Part shown: positions 12,105 to 16,277 of the stretch, one piece after another
Position numbering within the stretch: position 1 is the first letter of the stretch
Layout: the number at the start of each line of letters is the position of its first letter
Made by a program: the position numbers and the translations under genes
Notes under the pieces: generated by a model
What the model saw: the letters and a program-made list of their open reading frames with translations, nothing else
What the model was told of the DNA's origin: nothing
The model's database searches: none
From: Prescottella subtropica
GTDB taxonomy: Bacteria; Actinomycetota; Actinomycetes; Mycobacteriales; Mycobacteriaceae
Assembly (NCBI RefSeq): GCF_005434945.1
Contig: NZ_SKCH01000001.1
Coordinates: 186,001-250,000, forward strand
DNA: 64,000 bases
Reading direction: 5' to 3'

Positions 12105-12791
12105 ATGTTTCACGTGGAACTCGTCGATGAGCAGTGGGATGTCGCAGGGTCGGTGGCGTGGGTGTTCGGTGAGCGGGCCGGGCTGGCCGAGTCCTATCAC
12201 GGGCTGTTGGCGTCGGACGGGGTCGTCCGAGGGTTGATCGGGCCGCGGGAGGTGCCGCGGCTGTGGGTGCGGCACGTACTCAACTGTGCAGTGCTGGGGG
12301 AACTGGTGGGGGCCGGTGAGTCCGTGGTGGACGTGGGGTCGGGTGCCGGCCTGCCGGGCATCCCGCTGGCGATCACGCGACCCGACGTGCGGGTGACCCT
12401 GGTGGAGCCGCTGCTGCGGCGCTCGGTGTTCCTGCAGGAGGCGGTCGACTCCCTCGGGCTGGACAACGTCACCGTGGTGCGGGGCCGGGCCGAGGACTCG
12501 GGGGTGGTCAAGGAGGCCGGTGGCGCCGACGTGGTGACGTCGCGGGCGGTGGCGCCGCTCGAGAAACTCGCCCGGTGGTCGCTGCCGTTGATGCGGGTCG
12601 GTGGCAGGATGCTCGCCCTGAAGGGTGAGAGCGCCGCCGAGGAGATCGACCGGGACCGCGGCGTCCTCACCCGGCTGGGCGCGGGGAAACTCGAGGTACT
12701 CGAGTGTGGTGCCGACGTGCTGCCGGCGGCGACGATCGTGGTCCGCGCCGAACGCGTCGCCCGGCACCGGCACCGCGGTCACCGGAACTGA
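12105..12791 (+). CDS. rsmG: 16S rRNA (guanine-N7) methyltransferase RsmG, copy 1
   Basis: This 228-residue SAM-dependent enzyme modifies G527 of 16S rRNA. Family motifs are GLIGPREVPRLWVRH, the SAM loop VVDVGSGAGLPGIPLAI, EPLLRRSVFL and SRAVAPLEKL. It is about nine-tenths identical to the copy at 15597-16277; differences cluster near residues 32-41, 133-143 and the tail. The ATG at 12105 begins MFHVELV, with a parS-like site covering codons 1-6; an in-frame GTG lies 6 nt earlier. Family knowledge: loss of RsmG gives low-level streptomycin resistance, which a second copy could mask. Confidence 0.95.
   Translation: MFHVELVDEQWDVAGSVAWVFGERAGLAESYHGLLASDGVVRGLIGPREVPRLWVRHVLNCAVLGELVGAGESVVDVGSGAGLPGIPLAITRPDVRVTLVEPLLRRSVFLQEAVDSLGLDNVTVVRGRAEDSGVVKEAGGADVVTSRAVAPLEKLARWSLPLMRVGGRMLALKGESAAEEIDRDRGVLTRLGAGKLEVLECGADVLPAATIVVRAERVARHRHRGHRN
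12107..12120. other. parS-like site 2 (one mismatch, inside rsmG copy 1)
   Basis: GTTTCACGTGGAAC starts on the last base of the rsmG ATG and encodes the FHVEL segment. It differs by one base from the parS core, and the identical sequence recurs at 15599 and 23302. Confidence 0.75.
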
Positions 12792-12822
12792 CGGCCACTC
12801 CCCCGCCCGACGGCCGCGGCGC

Positions 12823-13215
12823 TCAGGGTTCGGCAGGCAGCAAGCGCTTGGCCAGATACAGCGCGTTCAGAGTGCGGGGAATGCCCGCATACGGAGTGAT
12901 GTGGGTGAGCGCCGCGACGATCTCCGTGGGAGTGGCACCGGCCCGCACCGTGGCCGGGAGGTGCGCCTCCAGTTGCGCCTCGCATCCCCCGATCGCGGCG
13001 AGGACCGCCACGGTCACCAACTGCCGGGTACGCAGATCCAGTTCGGGGCGGGCGATGATCTCACCGAACGCGTACTCGACGACGGTGTGCCCGAACCGTT
13101 CGTCCACCGGCGCCACCGAGGCGACGACCGCGTCGGGGTCGAGGCCGATGCTGCGCATGACGTCGCCGCCGCGGAGTTCCCGCTCGCTCGGCACCGGATG
13201 TTCGGGGCAGCTCAT
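12823..13215 (-). CDS. carboxymuconolactone decarboxylase (CMD) family protein
   Basis: This 130-residue protein matches the CMD fold (RTRQLVTVAVLAAIGGCEAQLEAHLPATVRAGATPTEIVAAL, split over residues 60-105). The family includes decarboxylases and AhpD-like redox proteins; the two-Cys motif of AhpD is not present, so peroxidase activity is unlikely. It overlaps the upstream aldo/keto reductase by 4 nt. Both lie inside the island between the rsmG copies. The substrate is unknown. Confidence 0.85.
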   Translation of the reverse strand: MSCPEHPVPSERELRGGDVMRSIGLDPDAVVASVAPVDERFGHTVVEYAFGEIIARPELDLRTRQLVTVAVLAAIGGCEAQLEAHLPATVRAGATPTEIVAALTHITPYAGIPRTLNALYLAKRLLPAEP

Positions 13216-14249
13216 GCCGAGACTCCTTCGCGGGTCGGGCGGGTGTCGGGCAGGGTCGCGGCCGGGTAGCGCGCGCCCCGGACGGCGTCGGGACGGAATG
13301 CCGCGTCCAGTACCGCGAGATGTTCCGCGGGCAGCGCGATCGAGGCGGCCGCGAGGTTCTGGGCCAGGTAGTCGAGCCGTTTGGTGCCGGGGATGGGAAT
13401 CACGTCCTCCCCCTGGGCGAGGACCCAGGCCAACGCGATCTGGCCGGCGGTGGCGCAGTGTGCCGCGGCCACCGCCCGCACCGACGCGAGCAGGGGGAGG
13501 TTGGTGTCGAGGTTGCCGTCGACGAAGCGGGGCATCACCCGGCGGATGTCGTCGTCGGTGAGCGCGTCGAGTGCCGCGATCTCCCCGGTGAGCATGCCGC
13601 GGCCGAGCGGCGAGTAGGCCACCAGGGTGGTGCCGAGTTCCCGGGCGGTGGCGAGGACCCCGTCGGTGACCACGTCGCGGGTCCACAGCGAGAATTCGCT
13701 CTGCAGCGCGGTGATCGGGTGCACGGCGTGGGCGCGACGCAGGATCGGCGCACTGACCTCCGACACCCCGAGATACCGGACCTTGCCCGCCCGGACCAGA
13801 TCGGCCATCGCACCGACGGTGTCCTCGATCGGTGTGTGCTCGTCGAGACGGTGCAGGTAGTACAGGTCGATCGTGTCGACACCGAGCCGGCGCAGGCTGG
13901 CGTCGCACGCCCGACGGGTGTAGTCCGGCCCGGCGTCGTGCCAGCGGCGGGCGCCGTCCCGGCGGATACCGAACTTGGTCGCCACGAACGCCTGATCGCG
14001 ACGGCCTCGCAGCGCCCGCCCGACCAACTCCTCGTTGTGGCCGTCGCCGTACATGTCCGCGGTGTCGAGGACGTGCACGCCGTTGTCGAGGGCGGCGCGG
14101 ACGACCCGGACGGACCGGGTGTCGTCGGCGGGGCCGTAGAACTCGCTCATGCCCATGCAGCCCAACCCCAGGGGGCCGACCCGGTCGCCGAGCATCCGGG
14201 ATCCGGGGCTGTGTCGATCGGGTGTGGCGGACGCTGCTGTCGTCGTCAT
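13212..14249 (-). CDS. aldo/keto reductase
   Basis: This 345-residue NADPH-dependent oxidoreductase has the AKR barrel. The N-terminal GPLGLGCMGMSEFYG and the tetrad residues in DTADMYG (Asp, Tyr), ATKFG (Lys) and YYLHR (His) are all present. The C-terminal PIPGTKRLDYLAQN is the cofactor-binding segment. The ATG at 14249 has GAGGAG at 5 nt. It is divergent from the MmyB-type regulator at 14412, which probably controls it, and heads a two-gene unit with the CMD protein. Confidence 0.93.
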   Translation of the reverse strand: MTTTAASATPDRHSPGSRMLGDRVGPLGLGCMGMSEFYGPADDTRSVRVVRAALDNGVHVLDTADMYGDGHNEELVGRALRGRRDQAFVATKFGIRRDGARRWHDAGPDYTRRACDASLRRLGVDTIDLYYLHRLDEHTPIEDTVGAMADLVRAGKVRYLGVSEVSAPILRRAHAVHPITALQSEFSLWTRDVVTDGVLATARELGTTLVAYSPLGRGMLTGEIAALDALTDDDIRRVMPRFVDGNLDTNLPLLASVRAVAAAHCATAGQIALAWVLAQGEDVIPIPGTKRLDYLAQNLAAASIALPAEHLAVLDAAFRPDAVRGARYPAATLPDTRPTREGVSA

Positions 14250-14330
14250 GTCGCTCCTCGTGGGGTGGCGTCGGATGGGGACGAGATCGAGCATCGCCGG
14301 TGATCCGCGGGGCAACCAGGGCGCACCGCA

Positions 14331-14367
14331 CCGGGGGTGCAGTGATCCTGGGTGTCGTGCACCCCGG
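14331..14367. promoter_or_regulatory. inverted repeat in divergent AKR/regulator promoter region
   Basis: The arms CCGGGGGTGCA (14331-14341) and TGCACCCCGG (14358-14367) face each other in the 162-bp gap between the aldo/keto reductase and the helix-turn-helix regulator. This is a plausible operator for that regulator (inference). Confidence 0.45.
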
Positions 14368-14411
14368 CAGCATGGTTGCCGGGGTCGCGCCGGCGCTGAC
14401 ACCATGACGGT

Positions 14412-15302: not shown

Positions 15303-15464
15303 TGCCCCGGATCGAGAGCGTCGAGGACGTGCCCGGCCGCTGGACCCGGTGAGAACCGGGGCGCGGCGATCGTCGTGGCGACGACACCGACGGCGGACCG
15401 CTACCCGCGGGGCCTCCGGTGCTCGAATCCCATTCACGTTCCCCCCCGTCGCACCGGGGAGTTT

Positions 15465-15477
15465 CGTCACTGTGACG
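15465..15477. repeat. palindromic motif CGTCACTGTGACG
   Basis: A 13-bp palindrome lies in the 294-bp gap before rsmG copy 2. A one-base variant (CGTCACAGTGACG) is the centre of the 51-bp palindrome at 18469-18519. The two copies bracket the rsmG2-parAB segment. Function unknown. Confidence 0.5.
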
Positions 15478-15499
15478 GCTGAGGTCGCCGCAAGGCGAT

Positions 15500-15513
15500 G
15501 TTTCACGTGAAAC
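15500..15513. other. parS: parS site 3 (perfect core)
   Basis: GTTTCACGTGAAAC is a perfect 14-bp parS core in non-coding DNA, 84 bp upstream of rsmG copy 2. It directly abuts site 4. Confidence 0.9.
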
Positions 15514-15527
15514 GGTTCACGTGAAAC
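15514..15527. other. parS-like site 4 (one mismatch, tandem with site 3)
   Basis: GGTTCACGTGAAAC directly follows site 3 with no spacer, so two ParB sites lie in phase 14 bp apart. Confidence 0.75.
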
Positions 15528-15596
15528 GGGGAGCCGCCGAGTCCGGGACCCTCCTCCCCTCCCCCGGGTGAGCGACACCGGGACGCATCGGTGAGG

Positions 15597-16277
15597 ATGT
15601 TTCACGTGGAACTGGTTGATGAGCAGTGGGATGTCGCCGGATCGGTGGCGCAGGTGTTCGGCGAGCGGGCCGGGCTGGCCGAGTCGTATCGGGAGGCATT
15701 GGCGACGGACGGTGTGATCCGGGGGTTGATCGGGCCGCGGGAGGTGCCGCGACTGTGGGTGCGCCACGTCCTCAACTGTGCAGTCCTGGGCGAGTTGGTC
15801 GTCGCGGACGAGTCGGTCGTCGACGTCGGATCGGGTGCCGGCCTGCCGGGCATCCCGCTGGCGATCGCGCGACCCGACGTCCGGGTGACCCTGGTGGAGC
15901 CGCTGCTGCGGCGCTCGGTGTTCCTGCAGGAGATCGTCGACTCGCTCGGGCTGGACAACGTCACCGTGATCCGGGGCCGCGCCGAGGAGGGCAACGTCGT
16001 CAAGGCGGCCGGCAGCGCCGACGTGGTGACGTCGCGGGCGGTGGCGCCACTCGAGAAACTGGCGCGGTGGTCGCTGCCGTTGGTGCGGGTCGGTGGCAGG
16101 ATGTTGGCGTTGAAGGGGTCGAGTGCGGCCGAGGAGATCGACCGGGATCGCGCGGTCCTCGCCCGACTGGGCGCGGGGAAACTCGCGGTGGTCGAGTGCG
16201 GTGCCGCGGTGCTGCCGGCGGCGACGGTGGTGGTTCGCGCCGAACGCGTCGCACAACACGGACGCCGGAAGCGCTGA
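15597..16277 (+). CDS. rsmG: 16S rRNA (guanine-N7) methyltransferase RsmG, copy 2
   Basis: This 226-residue second RsmG sits in the position expected for the ancestral gene, immediately before parA. All family motifs are intact (VVDVGSGAGLPGIPLAI, EPLLRRSVFL, SRAVAPLEKL), so both copies look functional. The first 18 residues are identical to copy 1, and the shared DNA extends back through the TCGGTGAGG before the ATG. A parS-like site again covers codons 1-6. A hairpin at 16285 separates it from parA. Confidence 0.95.
   Translation: MFHVELVDEQWDVAGSVAQVFGERAGLAESYREALATDGVIRGLIGPREVPRLWVRHVLNCAVLGELVVADESVVDVGSGAGLPGIPLAIARPDVRVTLVEPLLRRSVFLQEIVDSLGLDNVTVIRGRAEEGNVVKAAGSADVVTSRAVAPLEKLARWSLPLVRVGGRMLALKGSSAAEEIDRDRAVLARLGAGKLAVVECGAAVLPAATVVVRAERVAQHGRRKR
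15599..15612. other. parS-like site 5 (one mismatch, inside rsmG copy 2)
   Basis: GTTTCACGTGGAAC lies at the same position relative to the ATG as in rsmG copy 1, so it was duplicated along with the gene. Confidence 0.75.

What the first reader, a model, noticed from the sequence alone, without database searches (positions are those of the whole stretch)
12105..16277. Two intact, nearly identical rsmG genes flank a three-gene island beside parAB
Copies 1 and 2 agree at about nine of ten residues by eye and share the DNA before the ATG, including a parS-like site. rsmG is normally single-copy. The island holds a regulator, an aldo/keto reductase and a CMD protein that look unrelated to rRNA modification. 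A duplication followed by insertion, or a campbell-type integration through rsmG, would explain this. It may also mask streptomycin resistance from loss of one copy.
Basis: partly seen in the sequence, partly recalled or inferred. Interest (0 to 1): 0.7.

Follow-up and report, generated by a model that had tools for sequence, protein, structure and literature searches.

The report
Genus-wide rsmG twins kept alike
A normally single ribosome-modifying gene exists as two copies beside the chromosome-segregation genes in this genus of bacteria, and the copies look alike because each lineage keeps copying one over the other, not because the duplication is recent.

Summary
In detail: two intact rsmG genes (12105-12791; 15597-16277) flank CMD, aldo/keto reductase and MmyB-type regulator genes beside parAB, at 87.6% nucleotide and 88% residue identity. 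The interpretation changes. The pair is old: 13 of 14 genus genomes carry both copies at this place (the 14th ends inside copy 1), against none convincing in 385 matched genomes of a family sample. Most pairs are closer within a genome than to sister species. In 8 of 11 complete pairs the first 383-672 nt are identical, while the C-terminal tails are specific to position in 12 of 12 pairs. This is one old duplication homogenised by recurrent gene conversion. The three-gene island came later, only here: relatives often hold a lipase gene between the copies, and the window keeps an 87-bp lipase remnant. A parS-type site spans each start codon, invariant in 26 of 26 starts read, with further sites between the copies. 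Why no copy has been lost is open; selection on rsmG or on the partition-site array is my guess. I found no description in print.

The parts
12105..12791 (+). rsmG copy 1 (228 aa), tail of the copy-1 type
   Evidence: ORF; PF02527; tail motif
15597..16277 (+). rsmG copy 2 (226 aa), tail of the copy-2 type, next to parA
   Evidence: ORF; PF02527; PDB relatives 7cfe, 1xdz, 1jsx, 3g88; tail motif
12107..12120 (+). parS-like site over the start codon of copy 1
   Evidence: one mismatch to GTTTCACGTGAAAC; 16-mer invariant in 26 of 26 starts read
15599..15612 (+). parS-like site over the start codon of copy 2
15500..15527 (.). two abutting parS-like sites in the spacer (15500 perfect, 15514 one mismatch)
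16387..16400 (.). perfect parS-like site inside the start of parA
12823..13215 (-). CMD-family protein gene (island)
   Evidence: PF02627 70.3 bits; absent from the 12 other spacers
13212..14249 (-). aldo/keto reductase gene (island)
   Evidence: PF00248 235.4 bits; absent from the 12 other spacers; best relative elsewhere in the genus 53% identical
14412..15302 (+). HTH regulator gene with MmyB-like ligand domain (island)
   Evidence: PF17765, PF13560; absent from the 12 other spacers
15257..15343 (-). remnant (29 codons) of the 3' end of the lipase gene found in relatives' spacers; overlaps the end of the regulator gene
   Evidence: 66% identity, E 4.1e-4; 68% over 28 residues, E 1.7e-7 in a search of the spacers alone
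16348..17358 (+). parA
   Evidence: ORF; ParA-family name under a plasmid match
17361..18452 (+). parB (named from recall)
   Evidence: ORF
11427..12020 (+). jag (R3H-domain protein gene) before copy 1
   Evidence: ORF; R3H name under a plasmid match

Best explanation
One duplication of rsmG, with its ribosome-binding site and the parS-type site over its start codon, happened in the ancestor of this genus and gave jag-rsmG1-spacer-rsmG2-parA-parB. Since then the two direct repeats, 0.4-2.8 kb apart, have been made alike again and again inside single lineages by homologous recombination without loss of either copy (gene conversion). Conversion covers the gene from about 25-27 nt before the ATG to near the 3' end and stops short of the last ~30 nt, so each copy keeps the tail of its position. 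In the window's lineage conversion has been rarer or older (87.6% identity). The spacer is a separate story: a lipase gene sat in it early, decayed or vanished in several lineages, and in the window's lineage was displaced by the CMD / reductase / regulator cassette. Shown: presence across the genus, the concerted pattern, positional tails, low dN/dS, the lipase remnant, the invariant start-site sequence. Inferred: that the mechanism is gene conversion; that the lipase was ancestral; and that both copies are retained by selection (both encode a constrained RsmG, both starts are parS-like, copy 2 leads into parAB).
For: Two copies at one syntenic place in 13 of 14 genus genomes; none convincing in 385 matched genomes of the family sample outside the genus. 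Within-genome identity 78.4-98.2% in 12 pairs, one of them partial. First 383-672 nt identical in 8 of 11 complete pairs; in those eight, 129 of 139 differences fall in the last sixth. The tree of the first 540 nt rejects one clade of copies 1 (lnL 380 lower, p 5.6e-84, six sets of identical rows left free); for the last 110 nt one clade is not rejected (p 0.44). Tail motif HRHR[GS] in 12 of 12 copies 1 and 0 of 12 copies 2; H[GN]RR[HK]R in 12 of 12 copies 2 and 0 of 12 copies 1. dN/dS between the three least homogenised pairs 0.25, 0.11, 0.09 (G000, G008, G010). Lipase remnant at 15257-15343.
Against: Conversion is not uniform: G010 (78.4%) and G004/G005 pairs do not join in the full-length tree and G008 is unresolved. 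The tail tree does not itself split copies 1 from copies 2 (4 changes); the positional signal rests on about the last 30 nt, and the two motifs were chosen after seeing the alignment. G000's own pair has no long identical tract (longest 51 nt, permutation p 0.03). In the homogenised pairs dN/dS runs from 0.04 to 0.51 on few differences, so constraint there is not well measured. Unequal exchange between sister chromosomes could homogenise as well. One genome per species, no read data, no experiment.
Confidence: 0.85

Rival explanations
1. Independent, recent tandem duplications of rsmG in each species; no conversion.
For: High within-genome identity in most pairs; pairs join in the trees.
Against: The same place in 13 of 14 genus genomes, position-specific tails in 12 of 12 pairs, related lipase sequence between the copies in 10 of 13 spacers, counting decayed ones and the window's remnant.
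Confidence: 0.05
2. The old duplication arose by single-crossover (Campbell-type) integration of a circle that carried an rsmG fragment and the lipase; later conversion as in the best explanation.
For: Copy 1 has the native upstream side (jag) and copy 2 the native downstream side (parA); tails differ between copies, and the copy-2 tail of G000 and G011 ends like that of single-copy Rhodococcus L038 and L041 (RKR).
Against: Divergence of tails outside the conversion tract explains the same; no integrase, tRNA or Rfam element found (for tRNA and Rfam; no integrase search was made beyond the island's three Pfam scans); spacers share no clear sequence with Rhodococcus apart from short, mostly parS-like matches.
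Confidence: 0.2
3. Homogenisation by unequal crossing-over (triplication and loss) rather than by gene conversion.
For: G005 and G007 hold a second, decayed lipase in the spacer, as exchange between repeats could leave.
Against: No rsmG remnant in any of 13 spacers beyond short chance-level matches; copy number is two wherever it could be counted.
Confidence: 0.12

Closest known systems
tufA/tufB and other long-lasting concertedly evolving gene pairs of prokaryotes (PMC6053082, passages seen)
   Same: Old duplicate genes, each in its own fixed context, more alike within a genome than between species; recurrent gene conversion.
   Different: RsmG is a modification enzyme rather than an abundant translation factor (recalled); the pair was found in one genus only; the copies are close direct repeats with a changeable spacer; each start codon carries a parS-like site. 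rsmG and gidB have 0 occurrences in that paper's main text.
gidB-parA-parB locus of mycobacteria (PMC2346475, passages seen)
   Same: Order jag-gidB-parA-parB; a parS-type site at the 5' end of, or just before, gidB; gidB-parA co-transcribed there.
   Different: One gidB in the locus described there; here rsmG is doubled and 0.4-2.8 kb of changing DNA separates the jag side from the parAB side.
Single-copy rsmG loci of Rhodococcus (L037-L041)
   Same: Same gene order and the same 14-nt site at the rsmG start in 5 of 5.
   Different: One rsmG; in 4 of 5 a parS cluster lies between rsmG and parA, where this genus has copy 2 close to parA and sites between the copies.

Membership tests
RsmG / GidB 16S rRNA (guanine-527-N7) methyltransferase | PF02527 domain over the curated cut-off, full length | tested here: met
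   171.3 and 175.7 bits against cut-off 27; profile positions 5-177 and 5-178 of 184.
RsmG / GidB 16S rRNA (guanine-527-N7) methyltransferase | Sequence relative of a solved RsmG | tested here: met
   Copy 2 matches 7cfe, 1xdz, 1jsx, 3g88 (E 1.5e-64 to 3.3e-17); copy 1 was not searched.
RsmG / GidB 16S rRNA (guanine-527-N7) methyltransferase | Methylates G527 of 16S rRNA | not testable with these tools
   Needs an assay of each protein.
Concertedly evolving gene pair | Paralogues of one genome closer to each other than to orthologues of other species | tested here: met
   Pairs join in the full-length tree for 8 genomes (G000, G001, G006, G007, G009, G011, G012, G013); not for G010, G004 or G005; G008 unresolved. 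Identities.
Concertedly evolving gene pair | Duplication older than the species splits | tested here: met
   Same flanks; tails specific to position in 12 of 12 pairs; the tail tree alone does not show it.
Concertedly evolving gene pair | Homogenised silent sites, identical tracts with limits | tested here: met
   8 of 11 complete pairs have 383-672 identical nt from the ATG; not G000, G008, G010.
Campbell-type integration through rsmG (for the CMD/reductase/regulator island) | The island and the second rsmG arrive as one unit, absent together from relatives | tested here: not met
   Relatives have both copies without the island, and a lipase remnant lies between island and copy 2.
Campbell-type integration through rsmG (for the old duplication) | Hybrid copies: native-foreign and foreign-native halves | tested here: inconclusive
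   Tails differ by position, but this follows from divergence too.
parS centromere site | Match to the GTTTCACGTGAAAC palindrome near parAB | tested here: met
parS centromere site | Bound by ParB in the cell | not testable with these tools
   Needs a binding assay or ChIP.

The most novel reading that the evidence does not exclude
The second rsmG is kept for its DNA as much as for its protein: each copy is a block that carries a parS-type site (and perhaps a promoter), and conversion between the two maintains a two-armed partition-site array upstream of parAB, the methyltransferase gene serving as the homology that keeps the arms in repair; the spacer between the arms is thereby a tolerated landing place for changing cargo.
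Probability: 0.2. Interest if true: 0.65.

Novelty: new member of a known kind. Interest (0 to 1): 0.45.

Why it matters
Long-lasting concerted evolution is reported for few bacterial genes (26 prokaryote genes in PMC6053082, passages). This pair is a small rRNA methyltransferase held as close direct repeats beside the segregation genes, so it offers a compact natural system for measuring where conversion tracts end, and it poses a testable question: why has recombination not deleted one copy? It is also a practical caution: streptomycin-resistance calls that rest on a broken gidB/rsmG, and short-read assemblies, may misread this genus because a second copy exists (two of the draft genomes break inside copy 1).

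Tried and rejected
Recent strain-specific duplication: rejected, both copies in 13 of 14 genus genomes. Independent tandem duplication in each species: disfavoured by position-specific tails. Assembly artefact: disfavoured, the pair recurs in single-contig genomes. The island as cause of the duplication: rejected by the lipase remnant and its absence from 12 of 12 other spacers (the G002 stretch does not reach a spacer). Second rsmG in five other genomes of the family sample: four of the second matches are weak and lie far from the first (19.9-26.9 bits; one, G358, is given as 27.6 with its neighbours, just over the cut-off of 27), and one is the adjoining piece of the same gene. rsmG remnants inside the spacers: two short matches of 19 and 41 nt, taken as chance. 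Homology of the spacers with the Rhodococcus rsmG-parA spacer: short matches only (17-58 nt), read as mostly parS-like sites, so the origin of the spacer stays open. tRNA or Rfam element: none (for window 9000-20000, for window 1-30000). Promoter scan of 11900-17000: no sigma-70-type site; one terminator-like site, no more than the shuffles give. G576 of the phylum sample, with two matches, was not examined.
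Full report
OBSERVATION. The window lies in a 4.4-Mb genome (G000). Its genus contains genomes whose contig lengths equal those of records titled Prescottella equi, P. agglutinans, P. defluvii, Rhodococcus hoagii, R. spongiicola and R. xishaensis. The order is yidC (10317-11405), jag (11427-12020), rsmG1 (12105-12791), CMD (-), aldo/keto reductase (-), regulator (+), rsmG2 (15597-16277), parA (16348-17358), parB (17361-18452). The names yidC, R3H protein (jag) and ParA stand under plasmid matches; parB is named from recall. Pfam confirms both rsmG genes and the three island genes. 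The copies share 585 of 668 nt, and no third rsmG is in the genome.

IT IS A GENUS FEATURE. Of the 14 genomes of the genus that the search returned (own genome included), 11 have two complete copies; G005 has copy 2 and a copy 1 cut by the contig end; G003 has two copies with broken frames, in an assembly given as 79% complete in which parB is also split into two matches; G002, a draft of about 270 contigs, ends inside copy 1. Wherever both sides are held the place is jag-rsmG1-spacer-rsmG2-parA. Five Rhodococcus loci have one rsmG there. The family sample held 401 genomes, 387 of them outside the genus and 385 of those with a match; five showed a second match, none a convincing second rsmG. 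In a phylum sample of 198 genomes, 192 lie outside the family, 175 of them with a match at E 1e-10; one of these (G576, 81% complete) has two matches and was not examined.

CONCERTED EVOLUTION. Within-genome identity is 78.4-98.2% over 12 pairs, G005 being partial. Of 11 complete pairs, eight have an unbroken identical stretch from the ATG: G001 632, G004 557, G006 557, G007 383, G009 672, G011 536, G012 656, G013 663 nt of aligned codons; the other three have longest runs of 51 (G000), 110 (G008) and 28 (G010). In the eight, 129 of 139 differences lie in the last sixth. Before the ATG, identity runs unbroken for 25-27 nt in six of the eleven and for 3-12 nt in the other five. Silent divergence within a genome is 0-0.13 in the eight, while copy 2 differs by 0.15-0.74 in seven pairs of species. 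A tree of the first 540 nt (G005 copy 1 left out) rejects one clade of copies 1 (p 5.6e-84); for the last 110 nt such a clade is not rejected (p 0.44), though that tree does not itself show it. The last residues are specific to position in 12 of 12 pairs, by motifs that I chose after seeing the alignment. I conclude: one duplication, then repeated conversion. In the pairs that escaped it dN/dS is low: G010 dS 0.90, ratio 0.09; G000 dS 0.35, 0.25; G008 dS 0.21, 0.11. In the homogenised pairs the ratio ranges from 0.04 to 0.51 on few differences, and G009 has none to count.

THE ISLAND. Spacers run from 412 to 2832 bp in 13 loci. A gene on the minus strand just behind rsmG1, in G007 a Lipase_2-family protein (54.9 bits), is a long frame in 5 of 13 (G004, G005, G007, G008, G009; the last lacks about 30 N-terminal residues), broken in 4 (G001, G003, G006, G010; for G003 the assembly may be at fault), a 29-codon remnant in the window (15257-15343, minus strand, overlapping the end of the regulator gene), and untraceable in 3 (G011, G012, G013). 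G005 and G007 also hold a second, decayed lipase. CMD, reductase and regulator are in none of the 12 other spacers, and the reductase has no relative above 53% identity elsewhere in the genus. Hence the cassette came after the duplication and most likely after the lipase; G011, which groups with G000 in the rsmG tree, has neither.

PARTITION SITES. GTTTCACGTGGAAC overlaps the start codon of each copy; the 16-mer ATGTTTCACGTGGAAC is the same in 26 of 26 starts read (11 complete pairs, two of G003, one each of G002 and G005), and 5 of 5 Rhodococcus single copies have the 14-mer. The codon TTT that it needs is used for 0 of 31 phenylalanines in yidC, jag, parA and parB of the window, which suggests that the DNA and not only the peptide is selected. 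Each of the 13 spacers holds 1-5 further sites with at most two mismatches, and one or two more lie at the start of parA. Of 7 distinct perfect matches to GTTTCACGTGRAAC in the window's genome, 4 lie between the starts of rsmG1 and parA, inclusive. In mycobacteria a parS-type site at the 5' end of gidB or overlapping its promoter, and co-transcription of gidB and parA, are reported (PMC2346475, passages).

MECHANISM AND RETENTION. Shown: the pattern. Inferred: recombination between direct repeats, resolved without crossover. A crossover would delete one copy and the spacer; that this is seen in none of 13 loci suggests selection, whether for RsmG, for the parS-like sites, or for the leader of parAB. 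I cannot tell these apart. Streptomycin masking is a fair inference only.

LITERATURE. Searches for a doubled rsmG/gidB or for this locus returned nothing or listings that, by title and start of abstract, do not concern it. PMC6053082 (passages) reports 26 concertedly evolving genes; rsmG and gidB do not occur in its main text. The library lacks most subscription journals, so absence from print is not proven.

Noticed in passing
15500-15529: Two parS-like sites in tandem (14-nt unit, two copies) in the spacer just before rsmG2.
   Followed up: partly
12035-12073: Strong hairpin with 18 pairs and a short T-rich tail between jag and rsmG1, so rsmG1 may need its own promoter.
   Followed up: no
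549-562 and 23302-23315: Two further parS-like sites in the window away from the finding.
   Followed up: no
28503-28664: Adjacent tandem repeats with 24- and 48-nt units.
   Followed up: no
18677-19360: 227-aa frame behind parB without a Pfam match at E 0.001.
   Followed up: no
An assembly-quality problem seems likelier than real loss.
   Followed up: no
L051 and L049 spacers (G007, G005): A second, decayed lipase gene lies in the spacer beside the intact one.
   Followed up: no
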